Shown one piece after another: positions 34,801 through 43,317 of a stretch of DNA of 64,000 bases (positions within the stretch are counted from its first letter, which is position 1; the number at the start of each line of letters is the position of its first letter). Both the position numbers and the translations under genes were made by a program. The stretch comes from Marasmius tenuissimus. Taxonomy: Eukaryota > Basidiomycota > Agaricomycetes > Agaricales > Marasmiaceae. Below the pieces are notes generated by a model. That model worked only from the letters and a program-made list of their open reading frames with translations. It was not told the origin of the DNA and searched no databases. The DNA lies in assembly GCA_029532415.1 (NCBI GenBank), contig JAQOTA010000020.1, positions 806,001-870,000 on the forward strand, given 5' to 3'.

Positions 34801-34999
34801 GTGAATCTGGCTGCACCTCACCCCCATTAGCAGACATCTTGCCATATTCACGGATTTCATCCTTATCACCTGTGATCCTGTCTCCGTTGACTTCGGTCAC
34901 ATACACATATACTTAGTATTTATACGCGTCGCTCAATGGGGCTTGTATCCCCAACCCGTCCCTATTATAGCGTCCGTTCATCCAAACCACAGCGCAATC
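31869..34999. other. Gene-poor stretch
   Basis: Three kilobases without a supported gene on either strand. TATTTATAC at 34916-34924 lies about 80 bases upstream of the F-box start at 35000 and is a plausible TATA element. Confidence 0.4.
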
Positions 35000-36103
35000 A
35001 TGGCTTTGACCCATCCCGACGGCACCCACCATGAACGTCTTCTCTATGAAGAATCCGAGCTCCTCCATCGCCTCTCTTCCATACGTTCACAACTTAACCA
35101 TCTTACTCCAATCTCCAAGCTACCTCCCGAAATCCTCTCGCACGTCTTCTCCTTCTGCGTTACGCATCCTTATAGCAGAACTCTCGCCAAAAACACACTC
35201 GCATTCACCCAGGCGTGCCGAACATGGCGGACGTTGGCCCTATCTACGTCCAAGTTATGGTCTACCATCGACATTTGCCATGCTCGACACGCCGAGCTCT
35301 GCCTGTCGAGGTCAGGAGGAGCAAGCCTTTCGGTCATAGCACCGATCTCCGTGATGGCGTTTGAACGCCCAGGGTCGTTGGTGGGAGCAAGAAACCGCAT
35401 CCGAAAGATTGATGTGGTGATGTTCCCGGAATCAATGTTGAGGCTGTTCAAACAGATGATTATGGGTTTGGACCCCAAGGAGAGTCATGATGAGGTGGTG
35501 TTGGGTTCGAGCTCTAGCTTGGGAATGGGGACGAACGCGACAACTACGTTAGTACTGGAAAACCTAACGCAACTCAACCTTCGCCTCCCGTCGATCGTAG
35601 AACGTGTCGACCTTTCGTTCCTCCGCATTCCTTTCATACAGAAACTCTCCCTCGATAGTGTCAATTTGGACTGGATGTCCATCGCAGATGACATCCGAAA
35701 CCGAAATCGGGGCTTGAAGGCTCTAAGTTTATCCACGCTCACTATCTCGATGCACGAGCTCATAGCTCTGATCGAGCAAAGTGAGGAAGTGTTCCTCGAG
35801 GACTTGCACGTTCCTGATTACGAAGATGGGATATACGGCGTTTCCCCCCTATCATTACGAACGATGACGATCGTATCGAAAAATCAAGCTTTCGTGGACG
35901 CGTTGCTCTCCCGGTTGACCCTCCCTTCGACTACGGAAGTCGTCCTGCGATATCGGGATATACGCGTATCAGGAGCTCAGGCTCAGGCACGGGCGGCGTT
36001 GGCTGCTGCGATCAAGGATGGAGCTGGTCATTGGTCGGTGCAGTATGGGGTTTCGTCGGATGTGATGGCGATGTTGGGGTATCCGTTTCCTGTGACGGGG
36101 TAA
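35000..36103 (+). CDS. F-box protein, single exon (367 residues)
   Basis: An uninterrupted frame runs from ATG 35000 to the stop at 36103. A leading helix (LLYEESELLHRLSSIRSQLN) precedes a clear F-box: ISKLPPEILSHVFSFC, then FTQACRTWRTLALSTSKLWSTI. This is the standard basidiomycete F-box pattern with the C-R-x-W-R signature. The C-terminal two thirds contain leucine-rich segments (LVLENLTQLNLRLP, IQKLSLDSVNLDW, LKALSLSTLTIS). It probably acts as an SCF substrate receptor. It belongs to a different subfamily from the three 600-residue F-box genes in this window and has no introns. Confidence 0.9.
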   Translation: MALTHPDGTHHERLLYEESELLHRLSSIRSQLNHLTPISKLPPEILSHVFSFCVTHPYSRTLAKNTLAFTQACRTWRTLALSTSKLWSTIDICHARHAELCLSRSGGASLSVIAPISVMAFERPGSLVGARNRIRKIDVVMFPESMLRLFKQMIMGLDPKESHDEVVLGSSSSLGMGTNATTTLVLENLTQLNLRLPSIVERVDLSFLRIPFIQKLSLDSVNLDWMSIADDIRNRNRGLKALSLSTLTISMHELIALIEQSEEVFLEDLHVPDYEDGIYGVSPLSLRTMTIVSKNQAFVDALLSRLTLPSTTEVVLRYRDIRVSGAQAQARAALAAAIKDGAGHWSVQYGVSSDVMAMLGYPFPVTG

Positions 36104-36296: not shown

Positions 36297-38117
36297 TCAA
36301 GACCGTCCTAGAACACTATAGGCAGGGGGCAACCTCCCAGAAGGGCCCCTTCGTAACGATTCTCCTTCAAGGGGGCCCGCATCGACGTGCCTCTCTCTCG
36401 CTTCGATTGTGTGGACGTAAGTTATACCACCTTTTCTTGTCATCGGTGGTGGGGGCGATCGATGGTCGTTCCCTGAGGCGGTGTTACGCCCAGAGCCAGA
36501 CCGAGAGGTCCAAACAGAGATACTGTGCTGTTGACTATGTCCTGGTGTCGAAGTAGGTAAGGGGCTTTTGGTCAAAGGCCTAAATGCGGAGACAAGATTC
36601 TGTGAGGGTGTTGCGGACGTGAAAGGATCCAAGGTTGAACCTACATTCCGAGAGGTGTATCCAGATCGATCAATTTGTTGGTTTTATGAAGGGTTCAGAC
36701 TTAGACGTACCTCTATGCAAACTCTCATCGACGACAAAGCCCGAGGTCCCAACATGTTGCGATCGCTGTCTTCTCCTGTAACATAAGACAGCGAAAAGCC
36801 CACCGACAGTCGCCAGTGCGACCGCCCCAATGGCGATTCCTGCTTTAGCACCCGTCCCCAGTTTTCTAGATTCTGGATTCGAGCCCGGTTGAGAATCCGT
36901 GGATTGTGATTCTGCTGGGGACGCGGCGGATGGGGGAGAACTCAGCGTCTTCGCAGGACACTTTGTGAATATTTTGTCCGGATAGGCATTCATCTTTGTC
37001 GTTATGCTTTGGGCCGTGTGCATACTGTGAAACGAAGTCTGCTTAACATTTGATTGCATTGGGTGTTCGGATCCATTCGACTCACTAGAACCTAAGTATA
37101 TCAATCGCGGTGTCGCGCTCGTGAGTACGGACTAGGTTTCAACGACTTGCATAGTTTCAGGAACGTACCACGCCCCGTCTCTTGGCCATATCGAGTCGTA
37201 CAGCCAATCGATTATCTTTATGTCATTGTTGCAGACACCGAGCTGAACGTCAGCTGGCAACCTGTACATGATAGCATTAGTGAGCGTAAGCCACGACAGG
37301 AAGCGATTCAAGTACGTTCTGTTCACCTGAGGCGAACAAAAGGCGTTGTTTGGACGACCAGCATTCAGGTAGTTTGCATAGGTTCCAGGGGCTACGTGGA
37401 AACAATCAATGATCCACGGAAATTTCAAGTGTAGACAATTGATGGACGGGAATGGGCGCAGCGCTCACCAGCATCATAGCCAGATCCTTGTCCCAGCCCT
37501 ATCTGGCACCTATCATTGATGTTTGATCGTAAGCGGGTGAAAGACTGGCCGAAGAGTATACACATACGTGAGACACAACATGCTCAGTGAGAAGGCAATG
37601 TTATTGCAGCAACACGAACCTGTACGATGCGAAAAGGAAATCTGATTATGAGTGGGGACTGGGTCGTACAACAAGGGTGTGAGGACATTACTTACCAAAT
37701 TGATCGTTGCATGTGTCTGGAGGAGTGTTTGGTTGGAATGGAGGGGTATTGGGCCTAAGCTTACCGACCCGGTCTTGCCAGATCGAAGACAAAGCGTCCA
37801 AACACGATAAGTCAACCAAGAACAGATATTATGGGGAGGGCAAGCACTCATACAGCTGTCATTGCAGGTTCGTCGAAGGCGCTCGTATGTTTTGCCTAAT
37901 ATCGGAGTGAAGTGTTATCCAAAATTCAAAGTCAAAACGACTCAACTATTTGAATGTAATAAGGTAACTCACAAGGTGTCTCCCCGACCACTGAAGTGTA
38001 CCATTCCATCGACCCCGGATCTTTGCATCCGGAAGTTCCTTCTCCTTGAGCAACCGAAAGCAAGATAAAAGGAGACAAAGTCAAGAGGATTGAGAATAGC
38101 AAGGGCACCGTTAGCAT
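36297..38117 (-). CDS. Single-pass membrane protein with Cys-rich ectodomain, copy 1
   Basis: Ten exons can be read by comparison with the two downstream copies. Order: signal peptide (about 22 residues), VAQGEGTSGC, GETPC, KTYERLRRTC, RVGKL, CCCNNIAFSLSMLC, NNAFCSPQVN, LPADVQLGVC, GAW, then IFTKC. This ectodomain has about a dozen cysteines. A Ser/Pro stalk leads into one transmembrane helix (GIAIGAVALATVGGLFAVL), an RRRQR stop-transfer cluster and a Ser/Pro-rich tail ending ERHVDAGPLEGESL and SGRLPPAY. Exon 8 is only 6 nt (37086-37091). Copy 1 has an extra Pro-rich insertion after RVGKL. The layout suggests a cell-surface or wall-contact protein with a cytoplasmic tail; the ligand and function are unknown. 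Confidence 0.8.
37086..37091 (-). other. 6-nt micro-exon in membrane-protein copy 1
   Basis: The sequence is AG|GTTCTA|GT on the minus strand. It encodes the last base of Trp, Phe, and two bases of Tyr. Without it the frame cannot pass from the GAW exon to the exon encoding IFTKC. Confidence 0.75.
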
Positions 38118-38966
38118 TGGTTGGAGTTCGGGACGCTTTAAGTGATGGGAGAGAACCAGTCTCAGATCGGAAGTGGAAGACAAACGACAAAGGTACGAGT
38201 CAGGCGAGGAAGTCGTGAGCCATGTATATGAGGATGTTCATGAGGGAGATATTGACAGTGGCAGAATGACCTTGGCGGTGTTGGTAAACATCTTGAGTTT
38301 AACCGAACGAGAAGCCCGATTTCAATGTATGGTAGTAAGAGAAAGAGTGATTTGGTGATGATCATCACAATATCATCGCACCACGTGCGTTCAGGCCGGA
38401 GAGAACATCTGAAAGTTCACGTCTGAGCAATTCACGAATGACCGCCGGCCCTCCTAGTCTTCCATCATGGTGGGGTCCACAGGCGCCTAGGTAGGCACAC
38501 TAAGACTCATGGTCAATGAGGACATTGACAATGAACCTCGTACAGATTTTGCTTCCGTTTCATTGTAGTGAACCGTCATGCTCGAATACTCGCAGCTTCT
38601 CCGATTTGATTCGGGCTTTCTCGCCCTATGCCGTCCCTTACCGCCTACTCCAGTCCTACTCTGAACGGCCCTAGCACTTGGGAGTAGAGGTATAGCCGGG
38701 TTTCGACTCAAGACGAGGGACGAGACGGGTGTTGAAGGAGTGTTTAGCTTGAAAGCGGACTTGGGTAGTTATCGTTACGTGAGTTATATGTACGATGGGT
38801 CCAGGAAAAGAAATAAGTTACACTGATACCAGTAAATGATTGAATATTGAAGTCCCACAAATAAACTACGGAGCGTGAATCATAAGTTAGTGTTGGTGAT
38901 TGAAAGCCGCATCGCCACGAAAATCAAGGTCCTCGTAGTACGTACGTCCCGCAAACATGAAAAGCG
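38118..38966. other. Spacer between membrane-protein copies 1 and 2
   Basis: Contains the upstream region of copy 1 and the 3' flank of copy 2. No other gene is seen. Confidence 0.4.
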
Positions 38967-40872
38967 TCATATCAAATCCCCATAAGCGGGAGGCAATCTT
39001 CCCGACGTGTTTCTTTGCAACGAGCTCCCTTCAACTGGGCCCGCATCGAAATGCCTCTCGCTCGCGTCTGCTTCACTAGGCGCAGGCGGAACGTAGGTCT
39101 TCCTCGCATTTGGCGCTGCACCTTTTGCTGGTAATGGTAGCATTGGTGGCGGTGAGCGAGGCGACTGAGATGCATCTATAGACCCCTTTCCGGGACGAGC
39201 GGAGCTACCACTATCCGGGTTAGAGACAACATATCCGGTGGAAGACCCTTGTCCTGAGCTCGAGGAGCTCGTTCCGGGGGCGCGATGTTGTTGAGAGGCA
39301 GTGTCGTCAGGCTGGGAGCTGTTGTACCCGATCGTGGACGCAGGGAAATAACTTCCGGTGTTCGTCATGGTCTGTTGTGATGGCGTTGTTGAAGTGTAGG
39401 GATAAGGTTCCAAAGCTGCACATCGCGTGAGTGACCGAAGGTCAAATTCAGTCAGTTCCAAAGGCCGCATTTCATGAACCGGGAGAGGTGCAACGTACCT
39501 CCAACATGGGTATCTACACGGGAGTCGTCCTCATCGTCATCGTCATCAATAATGATCCCCGATGCGTTGACATATCCCTTCCTCTTCTTCCTCCTCAAGA
39601 AAAAGAAGGCACCAAGCACACCCGCTATCGCCAACACTGCTATTCCGGCAGCAATACCCGCTATAGCACCCGTCCCTATTCCGCTGGACTCTTCCGTTTC
39701 AGGTTGACTAGGCTGTGAGCTTGTTGGAGTCGGGGTTGAACTGGGCGACGACGTCGTCGTCGCTTTGCATTTGGTAAAGATTTTGTTGGGATTCGCATTC
39801 TGCGCTGTCGTCAAGGTCTGTGAGGCATAGACGCTGCAGTGAACGAGGGAGGGGGTGGTTTGTCAATCAGAGCTCTGAGCTGGATAGGAATACAAAAGCG
39901 AGCTTACTAGAACCTAGAGGGCCATTACAATGAGCAAAAAGAATGAAAGGAATACTGATGTTAGACGTACCACGACCCATCGTCCCAAAAGATATCATAC
40001 AGTCCATCATAGATCTTAATTTCCTGGTTGCAAACCCCGCTTTGAATATCGGCTGGTAGCCTGTTCAACATGTGAATCATGTCAGTAGGTCCATTCAGGA
40101 CATAAAAGAAGTCAAAGTAAGCACGTTTTGTTCACTTGAGGCGAGCAAAATGCGTTTTTGGGACGACCGGCATTCAAGTACATCTGGTAGGCGCCTTCAC
40201 CTGCGCGGGAGGAGATAAAGATGAGTTTCATTGTACGGCCACGAAGCGGTTGATTCGGAAGGTGGCACAAAGTTAGCACTTACTAGCATCGATGCCTGAA
40301 CTCCCCCCTTGCTGACACCTGAGGACTATTAAGCTCTTCCAGTCGAGTCGACAGGAGGGACGCACATACGTCAGACATAACATACTGAGCGAGAAGGCGA
40401 TATTGTTACAACAACACCTTGCTATTCAACGCGGGAGGGTGAAACACGGGGAAACGGGGTGAGTGGACCGCACTTGATAAAGGGCACCGGGTACTCACCA
40501 ACTTGCTCGTCGCATGTATCAGGAGGAGTGTTGGGGCTGAGCTTTCCTACACGGTCTATTCGTCGACGGAGAATGAGGAGGGACGAAACCAGCAACAAAG
40601 ATGTTTCGCGTACAACCACTATTGCAGAGCTGCCTGAGGCGTTCGTAGGTTTTGCCTAGTCGACGGGGTGTGGTATACATGGGTTAATCGAAGGATACAC
40701 AGAGAGGAAAGACAGGCGACGTACAAGGTGTCTCCCCAACGGTTGAAGTATACCATTCCATCGATTTAGGTTCCTTGCATTTCGAAGTTCCTTCACCTTG
40801 AGCGGCCGAAAACGAAACGAAAGCCGAAGGGGAGGAGAACAGGAGCAGAAAGATAGAAAACGTTGCTAACAT
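38967..40872 (-). CDS. Single-pass membrane protein with Cys-rich ectodomain, copy 2
   Basis: Same ten-exon layout as copies 1 and 3. A signal peptide (MLATFSIFLLLFSSPSAF) is followed by AAQGEGTSKC, GETPC, KTYERLRQLC, RVGKLSPNTPPDTCDEQV, CCCNNIAFSLSMLC, GAYQMYLNAGR, NAFCSPQVNK and LPADIQSGVC. Then come the 6-nt micro-exon (39908-39913), IFTKC, a Thr/Ser stalk, a transmembrane helix (GAIAGIAAGIAVLAIAGVLG), RRKKRK and an acidic Asp-run. The Ser/Pro/Gln-rich tail ends ERHFDAGPVEGSSL and SGRLPPAYGDL. Length is roughly 440 residues. Positive-inside charges after the helix support an outside N-terminus. Function is unknown. Confidence 0.82.
39908..39913 (-). other. 6-nt micro-exon in membrane-protein copy 2
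   Basis: CTCTAG|GTTCTA|GTAAGC on the minus strand. It has the same six bases and phase as in copies 1 and 3. Confidence 0.75.
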
Positions 40873-41359
40873 CGCTCCAGGAAGGGAACTCGTGAGGAGA
40901 AATTCAAAGGAGACGACGAGGACCAGCCGGTAGTCGTCGTTGAAGAAAAAGATTAGCGCATGGGCGCAATATTCTTTCGAGGTCAGGAGCCTGAGGAGGC
41001 GGGTTGGGCTGTGTACAAGGCTCCAAGGGGTTGCGTATGAACGTGAAACCCGACGAACCTATGCAGAGTGGCTAAATCAACACGTTTTCGCTTTCCCTTA
41101 GTCCCCCCACCCTGGCGCCTAAGCACAGGTTTACACCACCCAGGCACCACCCAACCACCACTAGCCTCCGAACCAAAGCCCGTGAGTCTCGAGATCGACC
41201 GTGAATAGGATGAAGTGTAAGTAAGTGTCGATATCGGTATATGTACAAACCCTGGAGAAAGATAAGTTACAAAATGAATGACTATTACTAGACTAGTTGA
41301 CTATAAACCGTATTTTGAAACCAAAGCAACCGCTCGTAAGGTTTATATATCCCATTGTT
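40873..41359. other. Spacer between membrane-protein copies 2 and 3
   Basis: Upstream region of copy 2. No further exon, tRNA or repeat is recognised. Confidence 0.4.
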
Positions 41360-43317
41360 TCATGAAGAGTCTCGCATTAGATCCCCATACGCAGGAGGCA
41401 ACCTTCCCGACGTGTTCCTCTGCAACGAACTCCCCCCGACGGGCCCAGCATCAAGATGCCTCTCACTGGAATCGGCCTGACTACTAGGGGCGGCGGGAAC
41501 ATATGTCATCCCAGCATTAGGGGCCGCACCTTTCCCTGGCAACGGCGGTGGCGAACGTGGTGATTGAGGCGAATGAGGGTTAGGCATCGATCCACTGGCA
41601 CTTCCACCCCCTCTGCCGCCATCTGGATTCGAAACGACGAATCCAGCGTTGCTCCCGTACGCTGAGGACGAGCCGTGGCCAGATCCAGATTGCGAGGTTC
41701 CACCGGAGGTACTGTGTTGTGGAGCAACTCCGTAGTTGGGGTGGTAGCTTGCTGCAGAAGCAGAGGCGGGGAAGTAGCTTCCAGTGCTCGTCATGGGTGG
41801 TTGAGAAGAATAGTACTGAGAGGTGGAACCCGAAGCCGAGGACGCGGGAGGTGGATGGTGGGAGACAGTCGTTGGTGTATAAGGGTAAGGGTTCGGTGGA
41901 GGTCCTGGAGCTATTGATAAGTTCGTCAGAACGTGATTGGTGCAGAGAGAAGGGGAGTAAGGGGCGTACCTCCTTGCGAACCGTCGATGCTAAAGCCCGA
42001 GGCACCGACATACTGCGTTCTCTTTCTCCTCTTGAAGAAAAAGAAGGCTCCAAGCGCGCCTGCGATAACCAGTGCGACTATCCCGACAGCAATCCCTGCT
42101 ATAGCACCTGTACCCAGTCCACCACCAGACTCTGACCCGTCCGATCCAGATTGAGCAGGCGATCCTGTTGAAGATGACGAGGCTGCAGGGGATGTGGGGG
42201 ATGTGGATGACAACGAGGATGTTTTCGCAGGGCATTTAGTGAAGACCTTATTGGGATTAGCCGCTTGATCCTTCGTTATAGTCTGCGAGGTGAAGATACT
42301 GCAACGAGTAAAAATGGATCAGTAAGGAGCGGCCTTGATATAGTGCGAAATTAAGCTTACTAGAACCTGAAAAGTGGCGTTTCATCAGCGAACACGAACT
42401 AATTCGATGTGAAGTGAGATGTACGTACCATGCCCCATCACCCCAAAAGATGTTATACAGATCGTCATAGATCTTGATATCCTTGTTGCAAATAGCGGAT
42501 TGAACGTCTGCTGGTAACCTGAAAATAGATGCCTGATTGGAAGGATGTGTGAAGGTGGTCGTTATGCGCACGTTTTATTCACTTGAGGCGAGCAAAAGGC
42601 GTTGTTGCTACGACCAGCATTCAAGTACGCTTGATATGCACCGACACCTAAATAAGGAGAACGGATATCACGTTAGCTCACGGGTCTTGAAAGGGGACGG
42701 GCGCAACACTCACCGGCATCAATTCCGTTGCCTGATGATCCCAACCCTTGTTGACACCTATCATTGATGTTGCAGATTGTGAGTTCGGGGAAAGGAACGT
42801 TGTGACGAAAACGCACGTTAGACATAACATGCTAAGTGAAAAAGCGATATTGTTGCAGCAACACGACGCTGTTGAAGCAAGAAAAAGTGGGTTAGTCGCT
42901 GGATTCGGGTAGAAGTGAAAAGGAGAAAACGAACCGACTTGCTCATCGCAAGTATCCGGAGGAGTGTTTGGGGAGAGTTTACCGACTCGGTCTAGTGTTC
43001 GAAAGGGTAAGGATGAAAGGAGCCGATGTAAGTGGACCACGAAGAGGGAGAGGTAAATCTATGTTCATACAGTTGCTGTTGCAGACCTGCCGAAGACGTT
43101 CATAGGTTTTGCCTAGAAGTACGATGCAAAGAGTCAGTCGAACACGAAAGGGTAGATAATATTGCGACAACGCACAAGGTGTCTCTCCTACACCCGAGGT
43201 GTACCAATCCAATCCCGTATCTGCACATTTGGTTGTTCCTTCTCCCTGAGCGGCTGAATACGAAAAGAAAGAAGAGAAAGAAAAGATAAACAGAAAAATC
43301 GAGGGCGCTGCCAACAT
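41360..43317 (-). CDS. Single-pass membrane protein with Cys-rich ectodomain, copy 3
   Basis: Ten exons as in the other copies. A signal peptide (MLAAPSIFLFIFSFSSFF) precedes AAQGEGTTKC, GETPC, KTYERLRQVC, RVGKLSPNTPPDTCDEQV, SCCCNNIAFSLSMLC, GAYQAYLNAGR, NNAFCSPQVNK and LPADVQSAIC. The micro-exon (42361-42366), the YIFTSQTITK exon, FTKC and a Ser/Thr/Gly stalk follow. The membrane helix is GIAVGIVALVIAGALGAFF, then KRRKR. The tail is the longest of the three, rich in Ser, Gly, Pro and Tyr, ending ERHLDAGPVGGSSL and SGRLPPAYGDL. Length is roughly 460 residues. The conserved last 25 residues suggest a cytoplasmic partner-binding site; this is inference. Confidence 0.83.
42361..42366 (-). other. 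6-nt micro-exon in membrane-protein copy 3
   Basis: TTTCAG|GTTCTA|GTAAGC on the minus strand. It joins the GGGGCATG exon end to the TATCTTCACC exon start and restores the frame. Confidence 0.78.

What the first reader, a model, noticed from the sequence alone, without database searches (positions are those of the whole stretch)
36297..43317. Three tandem membrane-protein genes all use the same 6-nt micro-exon
In each copy the exon ending in the Trp codon (TG) and the exon encoding the FTKC block can only be joined in frame through the six bases GTTCTA. These are flanked by AG on one side and GTGAG/GTAAG on the other (37086-37091, 39908-39913, 42361-42366). The introns around it differ between copies while the micro-exon and its borders do not. 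That is direct comparative evidence that it is spliced in. Gene finders normally miss exons this short, so orthologues are probably mis-annotated.
Basis: partly seen in the sequence, partly recalled or inferred. Interest (0 to 1): 0.8.

Follow-up and report, generated by a model that had tools for sequence, protein, structure and literature searches.

The report
Conserved six-base exon in mushroom genes
Three neighbouring membrane-protein genes of a mushroom each contain a separate exon only six bases long, and related genes suggest that this tiny exon is old, shared among mushroom-forming fungi and normally spliced in.

Summary
The micro-exon is very probably real. On the minus strand AG|GTTCTA|GT(A/G)AG lies at exactly the stated places and supplies W-F-Y in a complete 10-exon model of each gene. 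Better evidence replaces it. At least 14 family genes lie in this genome: ten have a 6-nt exon here (GTTCTA x4, GTACTA x2, GTTTTA, GCGATA, GTTCTT, GTACTT; three of the ten weakly supported), always G + codon + TA/TT; in three others the same codons are fused to the upstream exon; the fourth has a variant. Of 128 fungal family proteins 98 contain the block and 18 have Cys at the site, mostly as exact skipping would leave it, in Agaricales, Polyporales, Boletales and Sistotremastrales, so the exon is probably ancient and is usually annotated, not usually missed. No RNA reads could be mapped. Six-bp exons are already reported in a basidiomycete: a new member of a known kind.

The parts
42361..42366 (-). 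6-nt micro-exon GTTCTA (exon 8) of gene W3
   Evidence: chosen by 68 of 69 complete spliced alignments
39908..39913 (-). 6-nt micro-exon GTTCTA (exon 8) of gene W2
   Evidence: chosen by 69 of 70 complete spliced alignments
37086..37091 (-). 6-nt micro-exon GTTCTA (exon 8) of gene W1
   Evidence: chosen by 58 of 68 complete spliced alignments
41360..43317 (-). Gene W3: 10 exons, 463 aa, Cys-rich ectodomain, hydrophobic helix, tail with LPPAY
   Evidence: model
38967..40872 (-). Gene W2: 10 exons, 430 aa, same architecture
   Evidence: model
36297..38117 (-). Gene W1: 10 exons, 397 aa, same architecture
   Evidence: model
42367..42428 (-). Intron upstream of the W3 micro-exon (62 nt, GTACGT..TTCAG, CTGAT branch-like site at -22)
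42299..42360 (-). Intron downstream of the W3 micro-exon (62 nt, GTAAGC..TGCAG, CTGAT at -24)
39914..39970 (-). Intron upstream of the W2 micro-exon (57 nt)
39834..39907 (-). Intron downstream of the W2 micro-exon (74 nt)
37092..37168 (-). Intron upstream of the W1 micro-exon (77 nt)
37025..37085 (-). Intron downstream of the W1 micro-exon (61 nt)

Best explanation
GTTCTA is a constitutively included, symmetric (phase 2/phase 2) 6-nt coding micro-exon. It supplies the last base of a conserved Trp codon, a Phe codon and two bases of a Tyr codon in the ectodomain of an Agaricomycete family of single-pass membrane proteins. The two short flanking introns would be recognised one at a time by intron definition, since six bases leave little room for factors on both splice sites at once; a strong donor (GTRAG) behind the micro-exon would help to compensate for the poor exonic side (..TA|). 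The exon is probably old in Agaricomycetes; in one sub-family (the C70 genes) the upstream intron was lost and the codons are now part of the upstream exon. Shown: sequence, borders, phases, paralogue states, protein conservation. Inferred: inclusion in the RNA of this species, order of splicing, role of the strong donor, age and direction of change.
For: (1) At least 14 family genes in the same genome: 10 have a 6-nt exon here with AG and GT/GC borders, and changes among them are codon-like (first base G in 10 of 10; TTC/TTT/TAC in 9, CGA in 1; then TA in 8, TT in 2). (2) In C70a, C70c and C70d the same codons are continuous with the upstream exon (TGGTTCTA|, TGGTACTA|, TGGTTCTA|); spliced alignments choose that single-intron form in 68 of 70, 67 of 69 and 66 of 68. 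(3) Spliced alignment of 72 homologous proteins, chosen because they carry the motif, picks GTTCTA in 58 of 68 (W1), 69 of 70 (W2) and 68 of 69 (W3) alignments that reach near the query's end; median gain over forbidding it 14, 23.5 and 27.5. (4) Trp invariant, Phe and Tyr at least 90% conserved in an alignment of 50 of the first 105 hits; I picked these 50 and none of them is a Cys-at-site model, so this is conservation among models that keep the block. (5) Seven unbroken proteins of 348-469 aa on contigs of 1159-2792 bp (P0013, P0025, P0056, P0069, P0097, P0106, P0115), hard to get from unspliced genes of this intron-rich family and so probably cDNA, all read W-F-Y. (6) Skipping would make the cysteine number odd: the ectodomains of W1-W3 have 12 Cys each, as do 63 of 71 countable homologues that include the block. 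(7) The donor after the micro-exon is GTRAG or GCAAG in 8 of 9 modelled genes (one is GCAAG), against 30 of 89 other donors by the same rule, Fisher P = 0.002.
Against: No RNA reads from this species were available. Skipping is in frame, so frame does not prove inclusion. Three divergent genes fit less well: the micro-exon is chosen in only 7 of 40 (C63b), 27 of 41 (C33) and 28 of 36 (C10) alignments; C10 needs a GC donor, and its public model P0057 uses a longer exon. In one search a query with W-F-Y replaced by Cys, micro-exon forbidden, scored higher than the normal query for C11g0 (by 3.5), C10 (by 8) and C33 (by 1). 18 of 128 gene models have Cys at the site. The simple pattern found no branch-like site in the downstream intron of W1 and C7. 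The other donors used as control come from automatic models, some of divergent genes.
Confidence: 0.94

Rival explanations
1. Regulated cassette micro-exon: inclusion gives W-F-Y, skipping gives Cys, and the fungus switches between a normal and an odd-cysteine receptor.
For: The exon is symmetric, so both forms are in frame (sequence). 18 of 128 gene models have Cys at the site. Published fungal micro-exons can be switches (PMC11121469, passages read), and alternative splicing of codon-sized micro-exons is cited for truffle genes (PMC4986451, one passage read).
Against: Skipping removes conserved residues and gives 13 Cys. All seven cDNA-like proteins include the block. The C70a, c and d genes have made inclusion obligatory. 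The Cys models can be explained as gene-finder errors: P0003 and P0008 are very probably one gene modelled both ways.
Confidence: 0.04
2. The six bases are not an exon: one intron of 112-144 nt is removed, or AG|GT is a recursive splice site (zero-length exon), both giving the Cys product.
For: AG is followed by GT in 9 of the 10 genes; the four C70 genes have one 101-112 nt intron here.
Against: What is conserved after AG is codons, not a donor (GTTCTA, GTTTTA, GTACTA; GCGATA has no GT), while a strong donor lies 6 bases further on in most genes. The other introns of the non-C70 genes have a median of 63 nt (61 introns). In C70a, c and d the codons lie outside the intron, in the open frame.
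Confidence: 0.01
3. The exon has other borders, for example donor TGGTAC|GT in the upstream exon, or the AG inside GTTCTAG used as acceptor.
For: P0001 (M. tenuissimus) and P0017 (Marasmius sp.) look as if annotated in such ways (my reading of the protein letters); 8 of 68 alignments for W1 used TGGTAC|GTTC.
Against: These forms lose part of the conserved block or keep intron 2 as coding, and they do not recur across the paralogues.
Confidence: 0.01

Closest known systems
Micro-exons of Phanerochaete chrysosporium P450 genes (PMC1184071, passages read)
   Same: Basidiomycete genes with short introns; shortest exon 6 bp (2 aa); micro-exons said to occur in nearly one-third of the P450 genes.
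   Different: P450 enzymes; here a membrane-protein family, with fused paralogues as an internal control and apparent conservation across orders.
1-nt exon of CYP621A in Fusarium (PMC12940212, abstract and discussion read)
   Same: Inferred by comparing orthologues with a relative without introns; lies in a conserved motif.
   Different: There the exon is needed for the frame and SRA reads confirm it; here skipping keeps the frame and no reads were mapped.
Conserved plant micro-exons, e.g. APC11 and VPS55 (PMC8831610, passages read)
   Same: Deeply conserved tiny exons, often mis-annotated; relatives with the base subsumed in a larger exon (in moss, one isoform has it at the 3' end of a larger exon); conserved GTRAGT donor at VPS55.
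   Different: Plants, with RNA-seq and RT-PCR proof. Here the fused copies keep their other introns and lack only the one before the micro-exon.
Trichoderma Xlr2 20-nt micro-exon switch (PMC11121469, passages read)
   Same: Fungal micro-exon absent from the consensus gene model.
   Different: 20 nt and glucose-regulated; no sign of regulation here, and none could be tested.
Codon-sized micro-exons of Tuber melanosporum NACHT-ankyrin genes (cited in PMC4986451, one passage read)
   Same: Exons of codon size in a fungus.
   Different: Described as alternatively spliced for diversification; a single exon at a fixed place here.

Membership tests
Constitutive coding micro-exon | Very short exon with consensus splice sites on both sides | tested here: met
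   AG|GTTCTA|GTRAG in W1-W3; a 6-nt exon in 10 of 14 paralogues, three of them weakly supported
Constitutive coding micro-exon | Sequence conserved as codons across relatives | tested here: met
   F, Y or R, then Y or F, in all 10; block kept in 98 of 128 family proteins
Constitutive coding micro-exon | Relatives without the intron carry the same bases in a larger exon | tested here: met
   C70a, C70c, C70d; C70b is a variant (GCATTCTATTT) without the Trp
Constitutive coding micro-exon | Present in mature mRNA | not testable with these tools
   No reads; only indirect support from seven cDNA-like proteins
Switch-like (alternative) micro-exon | Both isoforms expressed and regulated | not testable with these tools
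   Skipping is in frame, but there are no expression data
Recursive splice site (AG|GT) | Donor consensus directly after AG | tested here: not met
   GTTCTA, GTTTTA, GTACTA, GCGATA, GTTCTT, GTACTT follow the AG
Mid2 (name given to many homologues by a source) | Match to the Pfam Mid2 model | tested here: not met
   No Mid2 match listed for 11 family proteins: 4 at E up to 1 and 7 at E up to 0.1

The most novel reading that the evidence does not exclude
A six-base exon kept since the common ancestor of at least Agaricales, Boletales, Polyporales and Sistotremastrales, in a family of Cys-rich surface proteins, works as a class-wide switch: inclusion gives a W-F-Y helix start and 12 cysteines, skipping an in-frame form with an odd, reactive cysteine.
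Probability: 0.04. Interest if true: 0.75.

Novelty: new member of a known kind. Interest (0 to 1): 0.36.

Why it matters
It is a clean natural case of an ultra-short exon in compact fungal genes: ten copies with it and three with the same codons fused to the next exon, in one genome. It offers a simple test of how intron definition copes with a 6-nt exon (strong donor, sequential splicing) and a ready test case for gene finders, since the skip error leaves a recognisable Cys in a domain that otherwise has an even number of cysteines.

Tried and rejected
Rarity of the motif: rejected as evidence, 12 genome hits against 18 for the pattern read backwards. Recursive splice site and single long intron: see rivals. 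Fold look-up: the AlphaFold model of the homologue P0005 (mean pLDDT 65.2, many ectodomain blocks near 90, helix 168-182 starting at the Phe of W-F-Y) had one PDB match by Foldseek, E 4.8; a sequence search of PDB chains listed 13 matches up to E 0.1, all within profile positions 188-326, the stalk and hydrophobic-helix part. Pfam: 10 of 11 family proteins scanned had no match above the curated cut-off; P0030 passed the Rifin cut-off by 0.8 bits, which I read as spurious. A hidden 6-nt exon inside the C70 introns: none found by pattern in 4 of 4.
Full report
What is there. The three genes lie on the minus strand. Each has a 10-exon model with no internal stop: W3 41360-43317 (463 aa), W2 38967-40872 (430 aa), W1 36297-38117 (397 aa). 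Exon 7 ends ..GCATG..TCGTG or ..GCGTG, exon 8 is GTTCTA, exon 9 begins TATCTTC, CGTCTAT or TATGCAC; together they read W-F-Y. By eye the protein has a signal-like N-terminus, a Cys-rich ectodomain (12 Cys), a Ser/Thr-rich stalk, one hydrophobic helix and a tail with LPPAY near its end.

The frame argument fails. Both junctions are phase 2 and the exon has six bases, so direct joining is in frame and replaces W-F-Y by Cys.

Chance. The 13-base motif occurs three times in the window with up to one mismatch, with 0.09 expected, but 12 times in the 71-Mb genome, 5 of them in this family, against 18 for the pattern read backwards. Position matters more: in dinucleotide shuffles of the interval between the flanking exons, a codon-compatible 6-nt exon with both introns of at least 45 nt appeared in 0 of 2000 for nine of ten genes and in 1 of 2000 for the tenth (C63a); any 6-nt exon in 3 to 40 of 2000. 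The C10 exon itself has a GC donor and would not fit the pattern used.

Paralogues in the same genome. Searches with the W3 ectodomain (the tool calls its counts lower bounds) led to 14 family genes. Ten have a 6-nt exon here: W1, W2, W3 and C63a GTTCTA; C63b GTTTTA; C7 and C30 GTACTA; C11g0 GCGATA; C33 GTTCTT; C10 GTACTT with a GC donor. The first base, third of the Trp codon, is G in all ten, and the changes keep Phe, Tyr or, once, Arg, followed by Tyr or Phe. In C70a, C70c and C70d the bases are continuous with the upstream exon (TGGTTCTA| or TGGTACTA|), followed by one intron; C70b reads GCATTCTATTT|. The C70 introns at this place are 101-112 nt, while the other 24 introns modelled in these four genes are 48-74 nt; no 6-nt exon was found inside them by pattern. 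In a tree of 42 ectodomains the C70 genes group together (97/89), while C33, C30 and the window group, with the micro-exon, lie on other branches (13 of 39 inner branches are well supported, midpoint root, and the exon of C33 is itself weakly supported). The simplest reading is loss of the upstream intron in the C70 group.

Spliced alignment. I wrote a small protein-to-DNA aligner with intron penalties (one search failed, one search ran) and set 72 homologous proteins, chosen because they carry the motif, against all 14 genes. Micro-exon chosen, of alignments reaching near the query's end: W1 58 of 68, W2 69 of 70, W3 68 of 69, C11g0 65 of 67, C63a 66 of 66, C30 70 of 70, C7 31 of 32, C10 28 of 36, C33 27 of 41, C63b 7 of 40. 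The last three are weak. In one search, with 7 queries, one version with W-F-Y replaced by Cys and the micro-exon forbidden scored 5.5-6 lower than the normal query in the 20 of 21 rows of W1-W3 that had the micro-exon (for W1, query P0073 took a single 140-nt intron), but higher for C11g0 (3.5), C10 (8) and C33 (1) where the exon was chosen; part of that output (C63a, C63b, C7) was cut.

Other fungi. Two protein searches gave 105 and 74 hits (in both only the roughly 8000 candidates sharing most words were scored), together 133 ids, of which I set aside 5 (P0101-P0105) as not of the family, leaving 128. Of the first 100, 83 include W plus FY, FF, RY, YY or YF; 10 have Cys at the site; 7 are otherwise. 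Of the 28 new ones I read 15 included, 8 with Cys (P0107, P0109, P0111, P0112, P0113, P0118, P0124, P0126) and 5 other or truncated (P0128, P0130, P0131, P0132, P0133; P0130 also has Cys there but breaks off). Totals: 98, 18 and 12 of 128. Several Cys models match a relative with W-F-Y residue for residue just after the site, e.g. P0063 C-M-WSYE against P0053 W-F-Y-M-WSYE, P0072 against P0030, P0124 against P0121. This is what skipping a phase-2 6-nt exon leaves. Such models occur in Agaricales, Polyporales (Dichomitus, Trametes, Ganoderma), Boletales (Suillus) and Sistotremastrales (Sistotremastrum); I looked up the order of Marasmius, Dichomitus, Suillus and Sistotremastrum, the others are recalled. 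P0017 and P0089 are not exact skips; for Suillus the better case is P0126, whose length fits. P0087 (Trametes cinnabarina) looks like a retained first intron ending R-FYV, as AG|GTTYTA would give. I hold no DNA of these species, so the age is an inference from gene models.

Conservation. In an alignment of 50 of the first 105 hits the Trp is invariant and Phe and Tyr are at least 90% conserved. I picked these 50 and none is a Cys-at-site model, so the figure describes models that keep the block.

cDNA-like records. P0013, P0025, P0056, P0069, P0097, P0106 and P0115 are unbroken proteins of 348-469 aa on contigs of 1159-2792 bp; all read W-F-Y. That they derive from RNA is my inference from the number of introns in this family. 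P0100 seems to be the opposite, unspliced DNA read from an intron into exon 9.

Mechanism. The donor after the micro-exon is GTRAG, or once GCAAG, in 8 of 9 modelled genes, against 30 of 89 other donors by the same rule (Fisher P = 0.002); the tenth gene, C33, whose best model lacked the exon, has GTGAGT. The exon ends there are CTA, ATA, TTA or CTT. A strong intronic donor that compensates for a codon-constrained exon end is plausible; a GTRAGT donor is also reported as conserved at a plant micro-exon (PMC8831610, passages). Sequential splicing by intron definition is inference from established knowledge.

Literature. A 6-bp exon is reported in P. chrysosporium P450 genes (PMC1184071, passages), a 1-nt exon in Fusarium (PMC12940212, abstract and discussion), a 20-nt switch in Trichoderma (PMC11121469, passages), and codon-sized micro-exons in truffle are cited in PMC4986451 (one passage). 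Searches for microexon with basidiomycete, Agaricomycetes or mushroom, and for micro-exon(s) with fungi or basidiomycetes listed no paper on this gene family by title; two of the lists were cut (12 of 15, 12 of 580), and only open-licence papers are held.

Noticed in passing
window 36297-36340, 38967-39010, 41360-41410 (-): The tails of the three proteins end near SGRLPPAY, a PPxY motif (recalled as a ligand of WW domains such as those of Rsp5); 87 of 100 family proteins have PPxY in their last 80 residues.
   Followed up: partly
G000:C11:787000-788300 (+), outside the window (L009): A fourth paralogue about 54 kb from the window's cluster, in opposite orientation, whose micro-exon is GCGATA (W-R-Y); two public models that are very probably of this gene disagree on the exon (P0003 skips, P0008 includes).
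   Followed up: partly
G000:C70 about 19.0-20.1, 21.2-22.2, 28.7-29.9 and 117.8-119.0 kb (L036, L037, L040): Four paralogues whose intron at this site is 101-112 nt, about twice the length of their other introns; why it is long is unexplained.
   Followed up: partly
window 34805-36103 (+): Single open frame with an F-box-like domain (Pfam PF12937, E 1.3e-7) next to the cluster on the other strand.
   Followed up: no
G000:C10 about 6220400-6221600 (L012): The C10 paralogue's micro-exon GTACTT is followed by a GC donor; its public model P0057 uses a longer exon instead.
   Followed up: partly
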